Assembly (NCBI RefSeq): GCF_010111755.1
Contig: NC_088962.1
Location: 62,001-126,000 of the forward strand
Origin: Nakaseomyces glabratus
Taxonomy: Eukaryota > Ascomycota > Saccharomycetes > Saccharomycetales > Saccharomycetaceae
Length of the DNA stretch: 64,000 nucleotides
Reading direction: 5' to 3'
In this document: one piece after another, positions 20,936 to 57,678 of the stretch
Position numbering within the stretch: the first letter of the stretch is position 1
Layout: the number at the start of each line of letters is the position of its first letter
Made by a program: the position numbers and the translations under genes
Notes under the pieces: model-generated
The model's input: the letters and a program-made list of their open reading frames with translations, nothing else
Told to the model about the DNA's origin: nothing
Databases searched by the model: none

Positions 20936-21463
20936 ATGGGAGCTGCACCATCTAAAATTGTAGAGACTCTATTGGAGGACACCAATTTTGACAGAGATGA
21001 GATAGAAAGGCTACGTAAACGGTTTATGAAATTAGACAGAGATAGTTCAGGGTCTATAGACAAAAATGAGTTTATGAGTATACCTGGCGTGTCTGCAAAC
21101 CCATTAGCTGGACGTATTATGGAAGTCTTTGACGCTGACAATAGTGGTGATGTTGATTTTCAAGAGTTTATTACTGGGCTTTCTATATTCAGTGGAAGAG
21201 GTTCAAAAGACGAGAAGTTAAAGTTTGCATTCAAAATATATGATATAGACAAGGATGGTCTGATATCCAACGGTGAGCTTTTCATTGTGTTAAAGATTAT
21301 GGTGGGCTCAAACCTTGATGACAAGCAATTGCAACAGATTGTTGACCGTACTATCATGGAGAATGATTTAGATGGTGATGGTCAACTAAGTTTTGAAGAA
21401 TTCAAGAGTGCTATTGAAACTACCGAAGTAGCAAAGAGCCTGACCCTTCAGTACAGCGTGTAG
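20936..21463 (+). CDS. CNB1: Calcineurin regulatory subunit B (EF-hand protein)
   Basis: This 175-residue protein is nearly identical to S. cerevisiae Cnb1, the Ca2+-binding regulatory subunit of the phosphatase calcineurin, which activates Crz1 in stress, ion homeostasis and azole tolerance. MGAAPSK at the N terminus is an N-myristoylation signal. Four canonical EF-hand loops are complete: residues 34-45, 66-77, 103-114 and 144-155, each starting with Asp and ending with Glu. The reading frame is continuous from ATG to stop, whereas S. cerevisiae CNB1 has a small intron close to the start codon; the intron is absent here. About 2 kb of non-coding DNA flanks the gene on either side. Confidence 0.98.
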
Positions 21464-23480
21464 TTCAGGCAAGAAACTTAACGAGGAGAGATGTAACTTA
21501 GGGCGACTAAGTATTTATGTATCTATGAATATCATGATATTTATTATTAAAGGACTCGATGAATAAAAGCAATCGATCACAAAATATCTAATGGTAAAGG
21601 AAATATAAAATCACCCCTTACAATAGTAAAGTGGTTGTCTTTCCTAGTGAGGGACATCAACACCCATTTCAAGGACAGAATAATCCTTGATCTACATTTC
21701 AGAGTTCGCATTTCTACTAATAGACAGTGATCAATAATATAACAAATAAAAACAATCCGATATATTGATTATTTCAACGTCATTAAACATATTGTATTAA
21801 TGTGGTTGGCACAATATAAATGCCATATGCAAGTGCAGTGATTAACGTAACAAATATATCATTGGGGAGTTGCTAAATAATAGCAACTTTTCTTTACCTA
21901 TTTATTTTACCCACCCACATTAGAAGAAAGAGTGGTTGGGGACTGTCTCATCCCAATATGAGCAAATAGTGATATCAAAGATTACCAATTGGTTGCATCC
22001 GGGTAAACCTTTCCTTTTGCGTTATCATCGCCCTTTCATGCTGGCTAGAAGTAGCGAGGATGTGGGATCCTTGCTATGAGGATAATGTGATCGATGAGCG
22101 TACGGGCATGTGAGGTGAGGATTCCATCAAGAGTTTCCTAATTTTGGTCGCATATGCATTTCATCGTGTATTCCTACATTTCAGTTAGACTGTTGCAGTG
22201 TTGCAGTGCTGCCCGTACACAGTTCAGCTCTTTCTCACTATAGAGGTCTTTCACTATAGAATAGTTTTATAGAATAGCTATTTCAGGAAAAGTGGAAATA
22301 ACGACCTTCGAATTAGTACTATTCGAGAGCCCATAGAGAAGCATATCAGAGACCATCAATTAAACATCTCTCTCCGAAAGTGTTGGAGGCAGTTTAGGTT
22401 TGTTTCTCTCTTAATACAGTTTTTGAAAGAGCTACTCTGTTGAAGTTGATAAAAAACCAAGATTAATCTTTTGGGAGAAGTGGTTTCTGTCAGGACAACA
22501 AGGTGCTACTACAACAAATCGAGTTAAAAGAAAAGACACGTTTGGTGCAGACTATCAGATTGGTAATACAAATCACAGTGCTGTAACTGAATACAGGTCA
22601 TCTCCAGAAAGATTGAAATAACTAATCAATAGCCTACCTTAGAATAGGGACTATCATATTCGGAATCTTTTTCTTCGAAAAAGCTCAGGCACCAATTTAA
22701 AAGAGTTGTGAGTATTTTGTTGGTGTGTATTTTGAGACTAAAAGGCAATTCAGGTAGATGAATTTCTGCATATTGAGTGAATTTTAGTTTGTTGAAGGTC
22801 ATTTATTCACATCGCATTCCTACATATAGTACAGACTGAGAAGCATTTACTACTATAATCTTCTATCTGAACTCCTGTTCCTCATTTTTTTTCTATTGGC
22901 AATACCGAACCGTTTAATTCTTTTCCTGTAAGAACAAGAAATTAAAAGTTCGTTTTTCATTTTGCTACTTGAGGAACACAAAGGCAAAATCTACAGAGAT
23001 AAGTGAAAACTTTTATAACGAGGGCAATTAATTGATTGTAAAATAAGTATCTCAGTTTAGGAGAATTGAAACTGTTGTTTTTCAATTTTGTGGCTATTTT
23101 GGTTGTCTTTACTAGAATCGTTTGGTAAGACCGAAGTATTGGTTTTGTGTAAGCTTTACATTTTTTTGCATTTTTGCATTTTTGCATTGAGGAACGTCAT
23201 CCTCATCTAGCCACTTTCTGTTTGAACTGTCCACTTTCTTAGTTTCCTCTGCATTAGGTTTTACACGGAAAATAAATTGATAGTACAAGATTTCTTGGTC
23301 GTCCATACCTTTGTTATAACTAGGAGATAAATTTTGAACATTTGTATCAATAAAAATTTGGTTTAAGAAGGCTGAGGTTAAAATTTTGAAAGGCCTTATC
23401 TTCAACTAACTGAAGTAAGATAAAAACTACTAATTCCAGTTTAGTCTTTACTGATTGTAATTTTACCATAACCAACAAAA
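21464..23480. other. CNB1 3' flank and GPB2 upstream region
   Basis: This 2.0 kb spacer holds a Reb1-type site (CCGGGTAA, 21999-22006), two GCCCGTAC octamers (minus strand at 22100-22107 and plus strand at 22211-22218), and a three-copy 8-bp repeat at 23163-23186. An antisense frame of 64 codons (23112-23306) looks mildly protein-like but has no recognised family. No gene is called. Confidence 0.5.
23163..23186. repeat. Tandem 8-bp repeat, TTTTTGCA x3
   Basis: Three perfect head-to-tail copies of TTTTTGCA lie about 300 bp upstream of the GPB2 ATG. The copy number is likely to vary between strains. The function is unknown; T-rich tracts of this kind can keep nucleosomes off promoters. Confidence 0.85.
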
Positions 23481-45207: not shown

Positions 45208-46227
45208 GAAAGTGCGTTGCCATTGCAGTGAATGCTAGCCTACATTAATTTTATTTTTTTTAAGCGTTGTTTTGAGTATTTCTGTTCAGGATGTATTCAA
45301 GAAAGGGACCAGTATATAGAGATAAATAGTATTTGCTTTTCTAATAGGGAATTTCCGGTTAATTACACATCTATAATCATAGTATGTCTAATTTTTTTGA
45401 TTGCTGGCTATGTTAATCTTACAGGACTAGTCAATAAATGCCGTTGTTGCACCAAGGGACAACACATCCCACACCCCCACGCAAACACAGAGAAACGCTC
45501 GCACCAACAGGACCAAGAAACGGGATAAGAGATGGCAAACTTACTTCACACCGAATTGTCACTAAAATCGCTGGGTCTTTGCTTTGCAAATGATGTGTAA
45601 TCAAGGGATGAATCTCGTTTATCATTGCTCGGTTGCCCTGCCCCACTGTGCCAATTGACTTCTTCCTCTGGCGTCGATAAACAATGGGGGAGTCATTTCT
45701 TGTTTCTATTGGGTATTGAAGGGGATCAATCGAGGGGCCATGCCCAGATAACGCAGGTGTTGGCGAGGGATGTGAAGTTAGCATGGATACTGGGCATATC
45801 AGCTATATTTCTTGCTCGTGGTACCCCCTCTCCCCCGGGTCTCAAGCCCCTTGGCACTTTGCACTTCGATAACAATTCCTTATATATACAGATAAATATC
45901 CTACTTTCGACTTAAACTCTGAACACCGATTTTCGAAGACCAGTTTCAGCAATTTCAACCAAGTAAAGGACAGTTTGTTATATAAACGTCTGTAATACAC
46001 TATTCTACTGGCTAGCATCGAGTAGCCTTACAAAGAGAGTATAACCCTTCGAGACTCTGGATAGTGTGACACGATCCAAACAAGCGTTGTGAAAAGTTCC
46101 CACAGTGAGGAGTCCGATAACGAAAGGAAAGCTCAACGGAAGGAGTCGCACGCAGAGGGATATTTAGTTCAATCACATCCTCTGGGGATAAAATAGTTCA
46201 AAGAGCCATTACCGTCTTAGTGATTGG
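45208..46227. other. MET30 3' flank / PIG2 promoter
   Basis: This is a 1.0 kb spacer on the plus strand. An ATG-started frame of 98 codons (45232-45528) with one hydrophobic segment begins 24 bp after the MET30 stop and is treated under findings rather than called. A TATATA-type element is at about 45880-45887. Otherwise I see nothing. Confidence 0.5.
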
Positions 46228-48711
46228 ATGTATATAGACGAGGAGATCGACAGTGTTTTTGTGCGGCGATTAGACGGCGATAGGAGTTCTGAAATGAAGA
46301 GTCGATCAACTAGGAGGTCGCTGAAGAAGAAGAAGAAAAGCAATGGATCTACAGCCAAAAGTACTTCTAGTGCACACAATGATAAGCCTGTGAAACAATC
46401 AGCTGTGGGACAACAACCTATGGCTGCTAAGGCCAATATGAGATCCAATGGCACTGCCGGCAAAACTGTGGTTGCGCAAGATGACTCAAAAATGGATGCC
46501 GAGAGGATTCATCAAGAGGCCACTAAAAGATTTGCGGTTATCGAGTCTATAAGGAACGACAAGGCCTTAGAGGCACAGACACCGTTTACTAAGAATTTCA
46601 CAATACATGAGAAACTACCAGATCACAAAGACAACAAAGATGTCAAAACAACCGCTGGCTCGGGAAAGAGTGACCTGGTAGTGGATACTGATGATCATAT
46701 TAAAACAGCTGAATCTATGGATATAAGGCTAAACAATCCCCTTTTGAAGGACTCACAAAATTCTGTGGAAAACGGTAAGGCCATTAATGTCGAATCTAAG
46801 AAGAACGAAGAACCTATGACTATTCTAAGAAAACATAATAATCAAAACATAACCGAAAACAAAAACGATACAGTACCCAAACAAAAAGATGCTATGCCAA
46901 ATGTAAAATACTCACCTAAGGTAAATGATACAAAAATCGAAACAGAAAATGTCTTAAAAAAAAATCACGATACATACACTCAACTTAATTCAAAGGTAGC
47001 CATTTCAATGGAAAATCCTGTGGAAAAAGTACCACTATCTTTGGATACATACCAAAGTCAACCTAAAATTAAAGCAGAGACCACCCCAGATCTTATTACA
47101 GGTGAAAGAAACATTAGGAGAACTTCAAATGTAATAGGGACTGGAAAGGGTAGAATAAACTCGCTGGATTTCTTGCACAAACCTCAAAGGGTAACGCAGA
47201 TGAAGTCCGAGGATTTCATATCTCCAGAGGAGCTCAAGCGGAACACTGATATGAACAAGCAAATTTTAATGGCTAAAATACTACCTGATGATAGAATTAA
47301 CGACAAAATAGATGATATAACGACACCAGAGGAAGAAATCACTGGTCTTAAACATGAGCTTGGCAAGATGTCTATAGGAAACGGCTCTGCCAACTCCCCA
47401 GCAATAAATTCTATAAAAGCGGAAGAGATAATCGAGCTAGCTCAAGATGAATCTATTTCGCCAACAGAGCACCATTATCCAATCCTAAATAGGGCCAACC
47501 AAGCCCAACAAGACGTGTGCTTACCCTTGCATGATTCATACGATCAATCTCCAGTGGAGGACCACATGATGCCATTGCCCCCGGTATACAAGAAGTCTGG
47601 GGAGCTGGTGAAGAGTTCTCTGAAGAGGAGATCGAAGTCCCTGCCGGTGACGCCAAACTCGAACAGGAGAACTCAGAACTCACGTGGCGTGCGCATGAAT
47701 AACCCCAGAGACCAATTGATTCGTAGTAAGAGTGTCCACTTTGACCAAAGGCTGCCAGTGAAGTATTTCTTCAAAGAGGAGAGTCCCAGCGTCGTTAGTA
47801 TCCGTGATGAAGAGGACGACGTGCTAAGTTTCCAACACAAGCCACTTGTTCGCAGTATTGATCGCAACAATGGCAGAAAGAAGAGGCTAGACCTGAACAG
47901 GAGACTTGAGGGTGGGTTTATGGATGACGATGAGGATGGGTATCCGTACAGCTATGATTACGACGAGGATGACGATGAGACAACGCGTGGGGGCACAGAC
48001 CTCGACCGGTACATGGACGAGTACGACTACGAGAACGGGTTCAGCCAGGGCGACAGTATCTTTAGCCGCGGGCTGAAGTCTCTGATGATGAACGACCGTG
48101 GCAGTGGTCTCAAGGACAACTTCAAGGACCCCACTCCGCCGGTCTCGCAATCAAGCACGAGCAAGAAAGAGGAGAAGATGACCACTCTAGTGAGCAAGAA
48201 CTTCCCAACGCTGGGCAGCAAGACGTCGAAGTCGCTGAAGTTGAACATCTTCTTGAACTCCACGAGCGACAAGAAAGTGCTGTTACAAGAGGTGAGTCTC
48301 AATGTACAGAAGCGCAAGTCCAACTACTACAACAGCAACTTTGGCGGACCCGGTATCGGCTTCTCCACTGGCCGAGACGAGGACGACAAGCTGATCATCA
48401 CGGGCACGGTGCTTGTCAAGAACATATACTTCGACAAGAAGGTCTCGATACGTTACACCTGGGACCACTGGCGCAGTTGCAACGAAGTGGAGTCCATGTA
48501 CGTGGGCTCCGGCAACAACTACCTGCCAGGATCGCAAATGGATATATTCAGGTTCATGATCGACAACACCGTGCTCAGCAACGGCCAGTACGTTTCCAAC
48601 CGCAGCCGAGAACTGGAGTTCTGCATCCAGTACACCACCCGCAGCAACACTGCCCGCGAGGAGTACTGGGACAACAACAACGGCAAGAACTACATCGTGG
48701 AAATCCAGTAG
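46228..48711 (+). CDS. PIG2: Glycogen-targeting subunit of protein phosphatase 1 (Pig2/Gip2 type)
   Basis: This 827-residue protein targets Glc7 phosphatase to glycogen. An RVxF-type Glc7-docking motif is present as KSVHF at 501-505. A CBM21 carbohydrate-binding domain fills about 655-825 (VLVKNIYFDKKVSIRYT, DIFRFMID, ELEFCIQYTT, YWDNNNGKNY). In S. cerevisiae PIG2 (YIL045W, 538) and GIP2 (YER054C, 548) are duplicates; this single gene sits where both would map (next to MET30 and HIS1). It is some 280 residues longer because of a low-complexity, Lys/Asn-rich N-terminal half that I cannot assign. An in-frame ATG at 46294, before a basic KKKKK stretch, is an alternative start. The 3' third is markedly more GC-rich than the middle. 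Confidence 0.9.
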   Translation: MYIDEEIDSVFVRRLDGDRSSEMKSRSTRRSLKKKKKSNGSTAKSTSSAHNDKPVKQSAVGQQPMAAKANMRSNGTAGKTVVAQDDSKMDAERIHQEATKRFAVIESIRNDKALEAQTPFTKNFTIHEKLPDHKDNKDVKTTAGSGKSDLVVDTDDHIKTAESMDIRLNNPLLKDSQNSVENGKAINVESKKNEEPMTILRKHNNQNITENKNDTVPKQKDAMPNVKYSPKVNDTKIETENVLKKNHDTYTQLNSKVAISMENPVEKVPLSLDTYQSQPKIKAETTPDLITGERNIRRTSNVIGTGKGRINSLDFLHKPQRVTQMKSEDFISPEELKRNTDMNKQILMAKILPDDRINDKIDDITTPEEEITGLKHELGKMSIGNGSANSPAINSIKAEEIIELAQDESISPTEHHYPILNRANQAQQDVCLPLHDSYDQSPVEDHMMPLPPVYKKSGELVKSSLKRRSKSLPVTPNSNRRTQNSRGVRMNNPRDQLIRSKSVHFDQRLPVKYFFKEESPSVVSIRDEEDDVLSFQHKPLVRSIDRNNGRKKRLDLNRRLEGGFMDDDEDGYPYSYDYDEDDDETTRGGTDLDRYMDEYDYENGFSQGDSIFSRGLKSLMMNDRGSGLKDNFKDPTPPVSQSSTSKKEEKMTTLVSKNFPTLGSKTSKSLKLNIFLNSTSDKKVLLQEVSLNVQKRKSNYYNSNFGGPGIGFSTGRDEDDKLIITGTVLVKNIYFDKKVSIRYTWDHWRSCNEVESMYVGSGNNYLPGSQMDIFRFMIDNTVLSNGQYVSNRSRELEFCIQYTTRSNTAREEYWDNNNGKNYIVEIQ

Positions 48712-49953
48712 CACAACTCCCCTACCTCTATCGGTGTGATATATAAGAATACTAACATATGTATCGGGCTTTAGCAATTATCGTCATATACGCAAATAAG
48801 TACTCCTCTTTTAACCTTCCGCCTTTGTGAGTGCTCTCCTAAATCACTCTACCTGCCCCTTCTCAGGGCCTCCCCCCGCTCCTCCTCCCCCACACATACC
48901 TGCGTACAGCTGAACTGGAAATAGAAAGAAACTTTGAAACAACCTGCAATAGGACTGAGAACTGCCCCTGAATACTCCAACTTCCTAAAAGGGAAACACA
49001 GGGATGTTATTGGTCTTGTACTAATTGTTTTCCTTACAAGCACAGACATTACAGCAGAAACTGCAACTTCCCACTGTAATGAATCATTTGTGTATTGGGA
49101 AGGGTAGTCCAGGGTCCGGTGTTTCTGCGTCTCCGTCTGTGGCTACGTCCCAGTTGAAATATAAATAGCCCTTGGCTATTCAGCTCGGTATTCTTGAAAC
49201 TCCCCACAGAAACACCCGCGCGACATTTTTCCAATTCCCTTTATTTCTGTTTTTCGCCACGGGCTTCTTCCCTGCTTGGTGCTCATGGCGCTCCTGTGCT
49301 CGGCCTATCATCGCTCTCCTGCGTACGTGTGAAAGCATAACTTATGTCCGGTTGTTCCGGTGTCTCCGGGTCTTTCACTGTGGCAGTCAAGTGTATATTG
49401 GCTGCCTCTCAAGTAGGACAGACAGCATCTGGACACAGATATTGCCGCACGCACCACCAGGTATTAGCTAATTAGAGATTTTCTCTTTGCAAGCACTGTA
49501 TCTCCGCAGCCTGTTGCACTCTCATCCTGCTAATGTGTGCTTGTCTTTTACAACCAAAAAATCTCTCAAAATGGCTGAAATGTCCAAAAAGTCCTCTTTC
49601 TTCCAAAAACCTGTGCACTTGTATGTACTTTGCAGGAGACACAGAGACATATCGGGGAGCACAGCCAGTGTGGACATGGGAGGCCTTCCCCTTTTTCTGA
49701 AGGGCATCGCCTATCCCAGTAGCCCTAAACAGTTACAAAGTGCCATTCTTTTTGCCATAATAGCGCACTTCCCAAGCAGTCAGCTACAACAACTCACACT
49801 AATGGCACCCAATCCCCAAGGTATATAAAGAGACCATGTCAATCAGGGGAAGTAAATATGTCTTCTGTAACATAATGACCAACACATTCAAGAAATAAAT
49901 AAACCATTAACTCCAAAATACAATAGAGAGATAGAAGAGACTAGGCAAAGTAT
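48712..49953. other. Region between PIG2 and the 37-codon gene
   Basis: This 1.24 kb interval is GC-richer than most spacers here, with C-rich STRE-like runs at about 48856-48890. A TATA element (TATATAAA, 49822-49829) is followed by an AGGGG core. Two short frames over 100 codons have no ATG start. I interpret most of it as the promoter of the small gene at 49954. Confidence 0.5.
49822..49829 (+). promoter_or_regulatory. TATA box upstream of the 37-codon gene
   Basis: TATATAAA lies about 125 bp upstream of the small ORF at 49954, a normal yeast TATA-to-ATG distance. An AGGGG STRE core lies just downstream. A 20-codon ATG frame at 49835-49897 comes first, so either transcription starts beyond it or it acts as an upstream ORF. 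Confidence 0.5.
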
Positions 49954-50067
49954 ATGCAAGACTTCAACATGCTGCTCACTATATTCTTTTTCGTTTGCGC
50001 TTTCTACTACGGTATTCACAGAACTGTGATCAACAGATATAAGGGCGAAGTACCATACCTGGCCTGA
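49954..50067 (+). CDS. Short membrane microprotein, positional match to YER053C-A
   Basis: This small ORF encodes 37 residues: a polar start (MQDFN), one hydrophobic segment of about 17 residues (LLTIFFFVCAFYYG, residues 7-20) and a basic/polar tail (HRTVINRYKGEVPYLA). It resembles a single-pass ER membrane microprotein. In S. cerevisiae a 37-residue protein, YER053C-A, lies directly downstream of GIP2 on the same strand and is reported at the ER; here the ORF lies directly downstream of the PIG2/GIP2 gene on the same strand. Length, topology and position all agree. Codons are mostly those favoured in yeast (TTC, GGT, AAC, GTT), and a TATA box precedes it. I did not align the sequences. The molecular role is unknown. 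Confidence 0.7.
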   Translation: MQDFNMLLTIFFFVCAFYYGIHRTVINRYKGEVPYLA

Positions 50068-50388
50068 AAACAGTACACAAGAAAAAAAAAAGACATTCAT
50101 GAATTTCCTTAAAAACATAATAAGCCGACCCCCTTCTTTACCACAACGAAATATCAATTCCCTTACAAAACACATCATCTAATTTATATCCACTTTTAAA
50201 ACCAATATTAAAATATAAGAAAAAAAAAAAGCTCTTAAAAAGAAGAGGAAATGAAATGGCTTCTGCATAGCTGGTCTAGCGCGAAATACCACAAAAAAAC
50301 AACAACAACATACATATCTAATCTTTAATTTTAATTTAATACATTATCTACATCAATTCTAATATATTATTACTTAACTATTCACAGC
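50068..50388. other. Convergent intergenic region, microprotein / AGE2
   Basis: This is 321 bp of A-rich sequence with several A-runs (for example 50080-50090 and 50219-50230), and should contain the 3' UTRs. No gene is seen. Confidence 0.5.
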
Positions 50389-51186
50389 TCAACTCCAGAC
50401 ATTCTTGAATAGCTCATCGTCATCGATGGAGAGCGATGAGTTATTCTGTGGTGTAGTGTTGAACGGTGTAGTCATGCCCATGCCGCTGGATACGTTCATA
50501 GTGCTGTTGTTGTTGCTCTTGCTGGCGTTGGCACTGGAGTACAATGATAGTATAGACTTCTTCAGGTCGTTTCGTTGCGGTGTGTCCTGCTGGGTGGGTC
50601 TTGCGGGCCTCTTATTTTCCACTATCTCTTTGCGGCCTTGTAAGTTCAGCAGGCTTGAGCTATGCGTGCTTTGTGGTTTCAACTTCTCTTCAACAGCAAC
50701 GGTGTTGTTCGTTGACTCATTAGACGAGGACATTGTGGACACCAGAGAGCTCGATGAGCTGTTGGCTTGGCTAACCACCGGCTGGTCGCGGGATAGGTCC
50801 ACACTGCTGTCCATCCAGCGCTTACGCTCGTACTTCTGCCTGATGAACTCTTGCAACAAGTTGATGTCGTTACCGAGGCTCTTCCCGTTGAACTTCGAAC
50901 TGTCGGGCAGCTTCGCCTCGTATACTCTGTTTGCGTTAACGTTGTTCCTCATCTGCACTAGCTCTTTCAAGTGCTCCTCCTTCCACGTATCCAGGTCAAC
51001 AGACTTGACCTTCGAGATATGTGTCCCCAGGGACCTGTGCACACCGGCACATTTGATACATATGAACACACCCAGAGACCACGATGCCCACCTTGGGTGC
51101 GACTGAGACTTGCAGTCCGCACATGAGGCGTTGCCGGGATCGCGCAGTAGCGTAGTAAGAGCTTTCTTCACTGGAACAGAGGTCAT
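50389..51186 (-). CDS. AGE2: ArfGAP Age2
   Basis: This 265-residue GTPase-activating protein for Arf1/2 acts in trans-Golgi and endosome transport. The ArfGAP zinc finger is complete: Cys22, Cys25, Cys43, Cys46, followed by the arginine finger Arg51 in GVHRSLGTHIS. The domain runs to about residue 120; the rest is Ser/Asn-rich and disordered. S. cerevisiae Age2 is 298 residues. The ATG at 51186 (MTSVPVKKAL) was chosen because it aligns with the family start; the twelve extra codons upstream begin with TTG. Neighbours CBR1 and PKP1 on the same strand give the YIL044C-YIL043C-YIL042C order. Confidence 0.95.
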   Translation of the reverse strand: MTSVPVKKALTTLLRDPGNASCADCKSQSHPRWASWSLGVFICIKCAGVHRSLGTHISKVKSVDLDTWKEEHLKELVQMRNNVNANRVYEAKLPDSSKFNGKSLGNDINLLQEFIRQKYERKRWMDSSVDLSRDQPVVSQANSSSSSLVSTMSSSNESTNNTVAVEEKLKPQSTHSSSLLNLQGRKEIVENKRPARPTQQDTPQRNDLKKSILSLYSSANASKSNNNSTMNVSSGMGMTTPFNTTPQNNSSLSIDDDELFKNVWS

Positions 51187-55509: not shown

Positions 55510-57234
55510 ATGAATTAATCAAAAGTATTTGGCCTTGATTGGGACTGCCATTGCTCTCATAGTCAAAACACAGTGTTTTAACTCTTTTACTTTTGCTATA
55601 TTGTCAAAAGATATGCTACTTATTCGTATAAAACCCATATAATTTTACAAATAGAAAATAATATATATATAATCACCAGAAGATATGCAATTGTTATGTT
55701 AAGTAACTAAATATCTCGGTTTTGTTCTATCCTTTAGGACCACTTACCAGCACACCAACATTGTCCAACTGATAAGTAGAGTATAATGTTCACATCGGAA
55801 ACATGACTGATTAATGTATATCAAAATATCCTAAGATAGAAGTACTAGTCATATAGCTAATTTGATCTTGAATTTATATTAAGTACTGCAAAAAAATTAG
55901 GTCCTACCCGGATTCGAACCGGGGTTGTTCGGATCAAAACCGAAAGTGATAACCACTACACTATAGAACCATAAGAAGTTCTTGTTAGTCTACAAAAATC
56001 AGGCTGCCATGTTGAAAGATATGAAAGTCACATGATCTCATTATTGTGTGTCATAGTGTGTTTCCCTTTTATATCAGCAACTTCATTGTATTTATTCATA
56101 AAATCTATTCCAGGTGCTGGAGGTTTTGAAGAATACGTTGTAGGTTCTACATCGTTTCTATAAGTACTTGATCTCTAGACACAATGTCCCTCTAAATTAC
56201 TTATACCTCACATGCTATTCTGTAATGTAAGTTATTTTCATCCACAAATAGTATACTAGCTATGCTGATTTCGATATCAAGAGGTTGTTTAAAGTATACT
56301 TTGATGAATGATAATTCGATCTTAGGATATATATAAGCTGTGGAGTCACTTGTGCTTTCCCCTTCTAAACTCCGCGTTGGTAAGGAGCCGGGTATATCAA
56401 GAAACTGATTGACAGTCCCAAGACGGTTTTTTTGGACATGACTATTGTTTCATAACAAATACATCCCATAATCATTGAAATTAATTTTTAAGATATCTAC
56501 AACTTGGGAATTATCCAATAGATGATTTTAACCCTCTCACATGAACATCTAGTGATTCTTGAAGATATCCTCAGTAACAATATTCTGACCTGATTATATA
56601 CCTTGATATATTAGTGAATATTATTGTACTCTACTTTCAGTTAGTAACATGTGCCTGAGTAATTGGAAATAGTAAAAATGTTGGCCTTTCATTTGCCACA
56701 TCTCTAGCATCGCAATTGCTATTGCCTTGATGTTTTATTTCCATGTCAACTTTCACTTAGTGGAAATGAGTTGGATATAATTTTTAGGATTGGGGCTAAG
56801 GAATCTTGCTCAACATAACAAAAAGTTTCCAATTATGAATAAAATAACAGGTTACCAAGTTGGATATCAGTTGCTATTATTTTACCTTTGTCAGTATCAA
56901 ATTGTATGCTCCAACATTTCACATTATATAAATTCTAAATGGATTAGATATCGAATACAAGAAAGTGATGCACTAATAAAAGTAGAATATTTACAAAGAA
57001 TATTGCCAGTTACAATATGTATACTGTTAGAAACATTTTCATCTGCTATAATTATTACTTTGCATTTGACTCCTTGACCAATATTCTTGGTTAATGAGTC
57101 CAGCTTATAATTAGCTTCTTAATTTGAAAAAAAAGGAAATCTGCGATGACATGCATAAACAGAGGCAATATTGTACTTGAAGTAGAAACGAAACAGACAT
57201 AAATCAAAGGCAACAACACCTCAGAAAATCACAG
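55510..57234. other. GVP36 3' flank, tRNA-Gln, and APQ12 upstream region
   Basis: This 1.7 kb interval contains the tRNA-Gln gene listed separately. The rest is AT-rich with no supportable gene; a 95-codon frame at 56790 begins with TTG. I see no LTR next to the tRNA. Confidence 0.6.
55899..55970 (-). tRNA. tRNA-Gln (anticodon UUG)
   Basis: A 72-nt intronless tRNA is on the minus strand. The anticodon loop TTTTGAT, closed by stem TTCGG/CCGAA, gives anticodon TTG. The T arm carries GGTTCGAATCC and the D arm GTGTAGTGGTTATCAC, matching the A and B box promoters. The acceptor stem pairs fully if one T-G wobble (position 4 with 69) is allowed. A run of seven T's directly downstream on the minus strand (55890-55896) is the RNA polymerase III terminator. 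The sequence is very close to S. cerevisiae tRNA-Gln(UUG). Confidence 0.97.
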
Positions 57235-57678
57235 ATGATGGATAGAACAGTTACACACCCAGAGGAGAACATACAACAACTGATTGTTGGGCTTTTAAGC
57301 AAGGTCATCAATTTCTTGCAGATACTGATCCCAGTTATTGTTCGGTTTAGCAAGGAGTACCCTACAGCTTTTATAGTCATTTCTTTGATCATAGGCCTGT
57401 ATGTAGTCTGGAGATGTATCATGAGCTTATATGCTATGGTTAGAAGATTGTTCTATCTGTCTCTTGTGTTGCTTGTGGTGTGTGCTTACATGCGTGGTGC
57501 AGAACTGTTCTTCGAACACGACGTTCCACTGGTGGCGAACGGTATCTGGGACAACAGAGAACTGATTAAGAGCTCTGTGGTATCTACATGTACATACGGC
57601 TACAAAATACTAAGACAGAATTCCATTATTCTGTATTACTACCTGAAGAACCAACTGGAAGAAGCTATCCAAAAATGA
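57235..57678 (+). CDS. APQ12: Apq12, nuclear envelope/ER membrane protein
   Basis: This 147-residue protein (S. cerevisiae Apq12, YIL040W, is 138) is needed for nuclear pore assembly, mRNA export and nuclear membrane lipid homeostasis, together with Brr6 and Brl1. Two hydrophobic segments (about 47-65 and 72-90) are separated by a short basic linker (MVRR), and an amphipathic perinuclear helix probably follows around 95-110. The N and C termini are polar. Two consecutive ATG codons (57235 and 57238) allow either start. Position after GVP36 supports the assignment. Confidence 0.9.
   Translation: MMDRTVTHPEENIQQLIVGLLSKVINFLQILIPVIVRFSKEYPTAFIVISLIIGLYVVWRCIMSLYAMVRRLFYLSLVLLVVCAYMRGAELFFEHDVPLVANGIWDNRELIKSSVVSTCTYGYKILRQNSIILYYYLKNQLEEAIQK

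What the first reader, a model, noticed from the sequence alone, without database searches (positions are those of the whole stretch)
49954..50067. Conserved-position 37-residue membrane microprotein gene missed by length cut-offs
A 37-codon ORF with one hydrophobic helix, yeast-preferred codons and its own TATA box lies just downstream of the PIG2/GIP2 gene. S. cerevisiae has a 37-residue ER protein, YER053C-A, at the same place and strand relative to GIP2. Identical length, topology and position over this distance suggest purifying selection on a protein of unknown function.
Basis: partly seen in the sequence, partly recalled or inferred. Interest (0 to 1): 0.75.

Follow-up and report, generated by a model that had tools for sequence, protein, structure and literature searches.

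The report
Tiny conserved yeast membrane-protein gene
This is a real, very small yeast gene for a 37-residue membrane protein, clearly related to a baker's-yeast endoplasmic-reticulum protein of unknown function, and it sits beside the duplicate of the gene that flanks the baker's-yeast version.

Summary
At 49954-50067 (+) there is an intact 37-codon frame. A database search that included a S. cerevisiae sequence I recalled from memory returned 37-residue proteins from S. cerevisiae, S. eubayanus and S. kudriavzevii, the last two named YER053C-A-like. The window's protein matches the S. cerevisiae one at 21 of 37 positions without a gap. Its synonymous codon choice is the most gene-like per codon of 158 intergenic ORFs in the window.

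One correction matters. The gene lies beside PIG2, not GIP2. This genome also has a GIP2-like gene, and no microprotein was found beside it. S. cerevisiae (position recalled) has its copy beside GIP2. So the two are probably sister copies from the whole-genome duplication, kept on opposite tracks.

Most likely it is a single-pass ER protein with a conserved basic tail, made under stress, acting as a membrane-anchored regulator. That mechanism is inferred. Not tested: dN/dS, transcription, translation and location in this species, and the S. cerevisiae PIG2 locus. Whether public annotations miss the gene is unresolved. New member of a known but uncharacterised family.

The parts
49954..50067 (+). 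37-codon gene for a YER053C-A-like single-pass membrane microprotein (stop included)
   Evidence: Intact frame; homologous to three Saccharomyces 37-residue proteins; best per-codon synonymous score of 158 intergenic ORFs; only match in the genome at E <= 10
49969..50016 (+). codons 6-21, hydrophobic helix (MLLTIFFFVCAFYYGI)
   Evidence: Hydropathy, helix H2-32 in the model; 7 of 16 residues identical to the S. cerevisiae protein
50017..50064 (+). codons 22-37, conserved basic C-terminal tail (HRTVINRYKGEVPYLA)
   Evidence: 11 of 16 residues identical to the S. cerevisiae protein, 10 of 16 invariant in 4 of 4 sequences
49822..49829 (+). TATA box, 132 bp before the start codon
   Evidence: TATAWAWR match; position suits a yeast promoter, transcription not tested
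48712..49953 (+). 1,242-bp upstream intergenic region, presumed promoter and leader
   Evidence: 3 TATAWAWR (0.37 expected); 5 CCCCT stress-element cores (3.11 expected, 0.202 of shuffles reach 5, not significant)
46228..48711 (+). PIG2-like gene (glycogen-targeting regulatory subunit of phosphatase PP1), upstream neighbour
   Evidence: CBM_21 Pfam match; second copy at C10; name by family and recalled gene order
50389..51186 (-). AGE2-like ArfGAP gene, downstream neighbour
   Evidence: ArfGap Pfam match; name by family and recalled S. cerevisiae gene order

Best explanation
A genuine protein-coding microgene, the counterpart of S. cerevisiae YER053C-A, in a genome consistent with Candida (Nakaseomyces) glabrata. 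SHOWN: frame, homology, gene-like codon choice, one match in the genome, location beside one of two PIG2/GIP2-type genes, and no detectable copy at the other. INFERRED: the gene stood downstream of the single ancestral PIG2/GIP2 gene before the yeast whole-genome duplication; this lineage kept the PIG2-side copy and Saccharomyces the GIP2-side copy. INFERRED mechanism: the product is a single-pass ER protein with a very short N-terminus in the lumen and a basic 16-residue C-terminal tail in the cytosol (positive-inside rule). The helix is mainly an anchor; the conserved tail (HRTV..R.K.[D/E]VPYL) is the working part and binds a partner membrane protein or lipid headgroups. It is made from a TATA promoter under stress and tunes that partner, as small proteolipid regulators tune membrane pumps. 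My confidence by step: real gene 0.97; YER053C-A homologue 0.97; opposite-track retention 0.85; ER location with cytosolic tail 0.6; stress-induced regulator of a membrane partner 0.3.
For: Intact 37-codon frame. Profile search hits from S. cerevisiae, S. eubayanus and S. kudriavzevii, all three 37 aa. 21 of 37 identical to S. cerevisiae, no gap; block-shuffled controls average 4.0 and never exceed 12 in 10,000. Codon choice 1st of 158 per codon, p = 0.0002. One match in the genome. GIP2-like paralogue next to an aspartokinase/HOM3-like gene, with no relic of the microprotein in the 528-bp gap: 30 of 200 shuffled queries score as well or better. Conservation concentrated in the tail: 11 of 16 versus 7 of 16 in the helix. 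In S. cerevisiae the GFP fusion is at the ER and abundance rises on DNA replication stress (PMC6523553, passages). YER053C-A is listed 9.8-fold induced by ochratoxin A and 7.2-fold by citrinin plus ochratoxin A (PMC5086634, passages), and is among the 10 upregulated outliers of hrq1-K318A cells (PMC7718736, passages). TATA box at 49822.
Against: No transcription, translation or localisation data for this species. Stress-element cores upstream are not enriched (5 observed, 3.11 expected; 0.202 of shuffles). Three ATGs (49836, 49858, 49875) lie between TATA box and start codon and would hinder translation if included in the mRNA. Reports on YER053C-A are not uniform: its two mentions in PMC5086634 fall in the ochratoxin A and combined tables, none in the citrinin-only table of genes over 5-fold, and the ochratoxin A table opens with meiosis genes, so sporulation-type control is possible; it is down-regulated under CdS quantum dots, with a tolerant deletion strain, and in a yhl042w deletion. 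A conserved helix face, which an in-membrane docking model would predict, is not seen (permutation p = 0.70, 0.86, 0.82 for three ranges). Whether S. cerevisiae lacks a copy at PIG2 was not tested. Four sequences from two genera is a thin alignment.
Confidence: 0.6

Rival explanations
1. The protein is real but is a constant small subunit of an ER membrane complex (in the manner of Ost4, recalled), needed for assembly rather than for stress regulation.
For: Very short single-helix ER proteins with a conserved tail often are complex subunits (general knowledge); ER location reported for the S. cerevisiae protein.
Against: Induction of YER053C-A in two toxin-response tables, and abundance reported to rise on replication stress.
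Confidence: 0.2
2. The gene is the strict orthologue of YER053C-A and reached the PIG2 side by a later move or gene conversion, not by opposite retention after the whole-genome duplication.
For: Only one copy was found in this genome, so the history is not directly visible; no relic was detected at the GIP2-like locus.
Against: It lies directly downstream of, and on the same strand as, a PIG2/GIP2 gene, the position recalled for YER053C-A beside GIP2; the flanks here follow the recalled S. cerevisiae chromosome IX order.
Confidence: 0.1
3. The frame matters as a translated regulatory element or by-product of transcription, not as a protein.
For: Short, with three upstream ATGs.
Against: 21 of 37 residues conserved with the same length and start; biased synonymous codons.
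Confidence: 0.02
4. Chance ORF.
For: 83 intergenic ORFs of 30-60 aa occur in the window and 8 of them, this one included, reach a hydropathy of 1.6.
Against: Homology to three Saccharomyces proteins and codon score.
Confidence: 0.01
5. The true gene is the 96-codon frame on the other strand (49888-50178), and the 37-codon frame is its shadow.
For: It is longer.
Against: It ranks 146th of 158 by coding score, has a negative synonymous score and no Pfam match; the same antisense frame over these 114 bases is open in 26% of 5,000 synonymous recodings.
Confidence: 0.01

Closest known systems
S. cerevisiae YER053C-A and the YER053C-A-like proteins of S. eubayanus and S. kudriavzevii
   Same: 37 residues, same start (MQD), single hydrophobic helix, tail HRTV..R.K..VPYL; 18 of 37 columns invariant in 4 of 4 sequences
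   Different: Here beside PIG2, there (recalled systematic-name order) beside GIP2; 16 of 37 residues differ from the S. cerevisiae protein; no localisation or expression data here
Yeast Pmp1/Pmp2 proteolipids and animal sarcolipin/phospholamban (recalled)
   Same: Architecture only: a very short protein with one helix; Pmp1 also has a basic tail
   Different: No homology was tested or claimed; no evidence that this protein binds a pump
Ost4 (recalled)
   Same: ER single-helix protein of about the same length
   Different: Subunit of oligosaccharyltransferase; not compared by sequence; YER053C-A is reported as stress-responsive

Membership tests
YER053C-A family | Sequence similarity over the full length | tested here: met
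   21 of 37 identical to the S. cerevisiae protein, E = 3e-16 single comparison; profile hits
YER053C-A family | 37-residue length with conserved start and end | tested here: met
   4 of 4 sequences are 37 aa and gap-free; MQD and VPYL invariant, last residue A here and Q in the other three
YER053C-A family | Single membrane-spanning helix | tested here: met
   Hydropathy and predicted helix 2-32; prediction only
YER053C-A family | Position just downstream of, and on the strand of, a GIP2/PIG2 gene | tested here: met
   Downstream of the PIG2-like gene here; S. cerevisiae position recalled from systematic names
YER053C-A family | Strict orthology (same post-duplication track); not needed for family membership | tested here: inconclusive
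   PIG2 side here and no copy found at this genome's GIP2-like locus, which speaks against it; the S. cerevisiae side is recalled and its PIG2 locus was not examined
YER053C-A family | ER location and stress induction | not testable with these tools
   Reported for S. cerevisiae only
Small proteolipid regulators of P-type ATPases (Pmp1 type) | Binding to and regulation of a P-type ATPase | not testable with these tools
   Architecture alone resembles it
Small proteolipid regulators of P-type ATPases (Pmp1 type) | Sequence homology to Pmp1 | not tested
   No direct comparison was run; no Pfam or NCBIfam match for 4 of 4 sequences

The most novel reading that the evidence does not exclude
A stress-induced ER regulator whose working part is a 16-residue cytosolic tail was already present before the yeast whole-genome duplication, was duplicated, and was then kept from opposite copies in two lineages. 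It would be an undescribed kind of micro-regulator with an unknown ER partner, and a reciprocal-loss locus among the smallest of genes.
Probability: 0.25. Interest if true: 0.55.

Novelty: new member of a known kind. Interest (0 to 1): 0.35.

Why it matters
YER053C-A is a stress-responsive ER protein of unknown function in the best-studied eukaryote. A counterpart outside Saccharomyces, at the duplicated sister locus, shows it is not a recent orphan and points to its C-terminal tail as the constrained part, which makes the function testable in a laboratory yeast. It also shows that small genes can be recovered by combining gene order with a known relative when sequence searches from one member alone fail: the window's protein used alone found only a shorter version of itself.

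Tried and rejected
Searching from the window's protein alone found only a shorter version of itself; relatives appeared only after adding the S. cerevisiae sequence. A third protein search with the four sequences found the same four database proteins and nothing further. Scans of bacterial/archaeal genome contigs and of viral contigs found no relative, as expected. A conserved helix face for in-membrane docking was tested and not supported (p = 0.70, 0.86 and 0.82 for three residue ranges), so I moved the proposed function to the tail. Eleven promoter motifs were scanned: stress-element cores not significant (two forms, 0.202 and 0.194); HSE-like sites 2 where 0.36 are expected (0.050), one of them downstream of the TATA box; TATA as reported; the other seven motifs had no site. 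PDB profile search gave only chance-level matches (7 at E <= 10, best E = 0.51). No Rfam match at E <= 1 in 48600-50500. No Pfam or NCBIfam family for 4 of 4 sequences. No relic at the GIP2-like locus. Papers: the SearchDOGS paper (PMC3161974, passages) added 16 genes to C. glabrata; whether this is one of them could not be seen, because its main text has no string beginning YER0 and supplements could not be read. PMC7394265, PMC2675101 and PMC11232214 (passages) gave no mention of YER05 or YER053. A paper I recalled on the C. glabrata transcriptome is not held. The search for 'YER053C-A' listed 6 papers; I saw passages of 5, and the sixth, PMC2447204, showed no occurrence in the text held. 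Paper-search listings; two searches found no paper.

Full report
WHAT IS THERE. The window has an intact 37-codon frame at 49954-50067 (+), MQDFNMLLTIFFFVCAFYYGIHRTVINRYKGEVPYLA. The genome holding the window has 12,726,212 bases in 13 contigs. That is consistent with long-read assemblies of Candida glabrata: the table seen lists assemblies of 12.35-12.73 Mb, 12 of them in 13 contigs at 12.60-12.71 Mb (PMC9548116, passages). The species name is therefore an inference. The protein has one match in the genome at E <= 10; that search scores only candidates of a first look, so a strongly diverged copy could be missed.

IS IT MORE THAN CHANCE. A hydrophobic stretch in a small ORF is weak evidence: 8 of 83 intergenic ORFs of 30-60 aa in the window, this one included, reach a hydropathy of 1.6. 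Overall codon score ranks it 6th of 158 intergenic ORFs of 25 aa or more. Synonymous choice alone ranks it 1st per codon and 2nd in total, and 0.0002 of 5,000 recodings with intergenic triplet frequencies reach it. The 158 include at least two evident longer genes that my 200-aa gene cut-off left as 'intergenic': 20936-21463 (175 aa, looks like an EF-hand protein by eye) and 57235-57678 (Apq12 by Pfam). The 96-codon frame on the other strand ranks 146th of 158 and is an expected shadow: that antisense frame over these 114 bases is open in 26% of synonymous recodings.

HOMOLOGY. Searching 5.8 billion proteins with the window's frame found only a 32-residue version of itself. I then aligned it with the S. 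cerevisiae YER053C-A sequence as I remembered it. Because I had already seen the window's protein, that recall needed a check. The search with this alignment returned a S. cerevisiae protein identical to the recalled one, plus S. eubayanus and S. kudriavzevii proteins whose UniRef names read YER053C-A-like. The visible part of the S. cerevisiae row does not print the name YER053C-A, so that label rests on recall and on the sister species' names. The window's protein shares 21 of 37 residues with it, without gaps, against a mean of 4.0 and a maximum of 12 in 10,000 block shuffles; BLASTP E = 3e-16 for the single pair. In the four sequences 18 of 37 columns are invariant. Identity to the S. cerevisiae protein is 3 of 5 in the N-terminus, 7 of 16 in the helix and 11 of 16 in the tail.

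PLACE. Pfam shows the neighbours as an F-box/WD40 protein (MET30-like), CBM_21 (PIG2/GIP2), ArfGap (AGE2-like), flavin/NAD oxidoreductase (CBR1-like), mitochondrial protein kinase (PKP1-like) and BAR_2 (GVP36-like), then Apq12. From memory this is the S. cerevisiae chromosome IX order YIL046W to YIL040W; that PIG2 is YIL045W and GIP2 is YER054C was seen in PMC2965658 (passages). A second CBM_21 gene at C10:301830-303329 (49, 56 and 50% identity in three pieces) is flanked on the downstream side by aspartokinase (HOM3-like), a Jumonji-type gene (match below Pfam's cut-off), mitochondrial S18 (best PDB match RSM18) and an Ofd1-type oxygenase (TPA1-like), the recalled chromosome V order around GIP2. 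Two further CBM_21 genes (C6, C8) are more distant (25-27% identity) and were not examined. In the 528-bp GIP2-HOM3 gap no microprotein was found: the best local match is reached by 30 of 200 shuffled queries with the window protein and 69 of 200 with the S. cerevisiae one, while in the positive control 0 of 200 reach it for either query. So this genome has the gene on the PIG2 side and not on the GIP2 side; S. cerevisiae has it on the GIP2 side (recalled). Opposite retention after the whole-genome duplication is the simplest history. It needs the S. cerevisiae PIG2 side to be empty, which I did not test.

REGULATION. The 1,242-bp upstream gap has 3 TATAWAWR sites (0.37 expected; 0.014 of shuffles, uncorrected for 11 motifs), one 132 bp before the ATG, and 5 CCCCT cores (3.11 expected; not significant). 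Three ATGs lie between TATA box and start; their relevance depends on an unknown transcription start. In S. cerevisiae, passages report ER location and rise on DNA replication stress (PMC6523553; the rise also in PMC7718736, and PMC4236716). YER053C-A is among the 10 upregulated outliers of hrq1-K318A cells. It is listed 9.8-fold induced by ochratoxin A and 7.2-fold by citrinin plus ochratoxin A; its only two mentions in that paper fall in those two tables, so it is not in the citrinin-only table of genes over 5-fold (PMC5086634). The ochratoxin A table opens with meiosis genes, so sporulation-type control is an alternative to general stress control. Against a simple stress-gene reading: down-regulation under CdS quantum dots with a tolerant deletion strain, down-regulation in a yhl042w deletion, and an unusual time course of genetic effects (PMC4256076).

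HOW IT MOST LIKELY WORKS. AlphaFold2 predicts one helix, 2-32, confident to about residue 20 (block means 90, 93, 74, 55). The flank after the helix is net positive (+2 without His), so the positive-inside rule puts the tail in the cytosol. I first expected a conserved helix face docking in the membrane; the test did not support it (p = 0.70). The tail is the more constrained part, so I propose it is the working part: a membrane-anchored peptide that binds a partner or lipid headgroups and tunes it under stress. This is inference at about 0.3.

NOVELTY. The family is known by name and has no known function in the passages seen. The window's gene is a new member of it as far as I could see from the paper searches. 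Whether databases already list it is unresolved: sources of the window's own proteins are hidden, and a synteny-based re-annotation added 16 genes to C. glabrata without a list in the passages I saw (PMC3161974).

Noticed in passing
L008:6758-7285 (G000:C10): The GIP2-like locus shows no microprotein and no other long gene between GIP2-like and HOM3-like, where S. cerevisiae (recalled) has PIC2 and YER053C-A.
   Followed up: partly
49836, 49858, 49875: Three ATGs opening 20-, 5- and 7-codon frames between the TATA box and the start codon; possible upstream ORFs if the mRNA starts early.
   Followed up: partly
49888-50178: 96-codon frame on the opposite strand covering the whole gene; scores as non-coding.
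   Followed up: yes
57235-57678: 147-aa Apq12-like gene (Pfam PF12716), continuing the conserved gene order.
   Followed up: partly
23112-23306: 64-codon frame on the minus strand with the third-best coding score of 158 intergenic ORFs and no Pfam match; another possible small gene.
   Followed up: no
45232-45528: 98-codon frame with a hydrophobic stretch in the MET30-PIG2 gap, where S. cerevisiae (recalled) has a small annotated ORF, YIL046W-A.
   Followed up: no
55899-55970: tRNA-Gln (anticodon TTG) on the minus strand.
   Followed up: no
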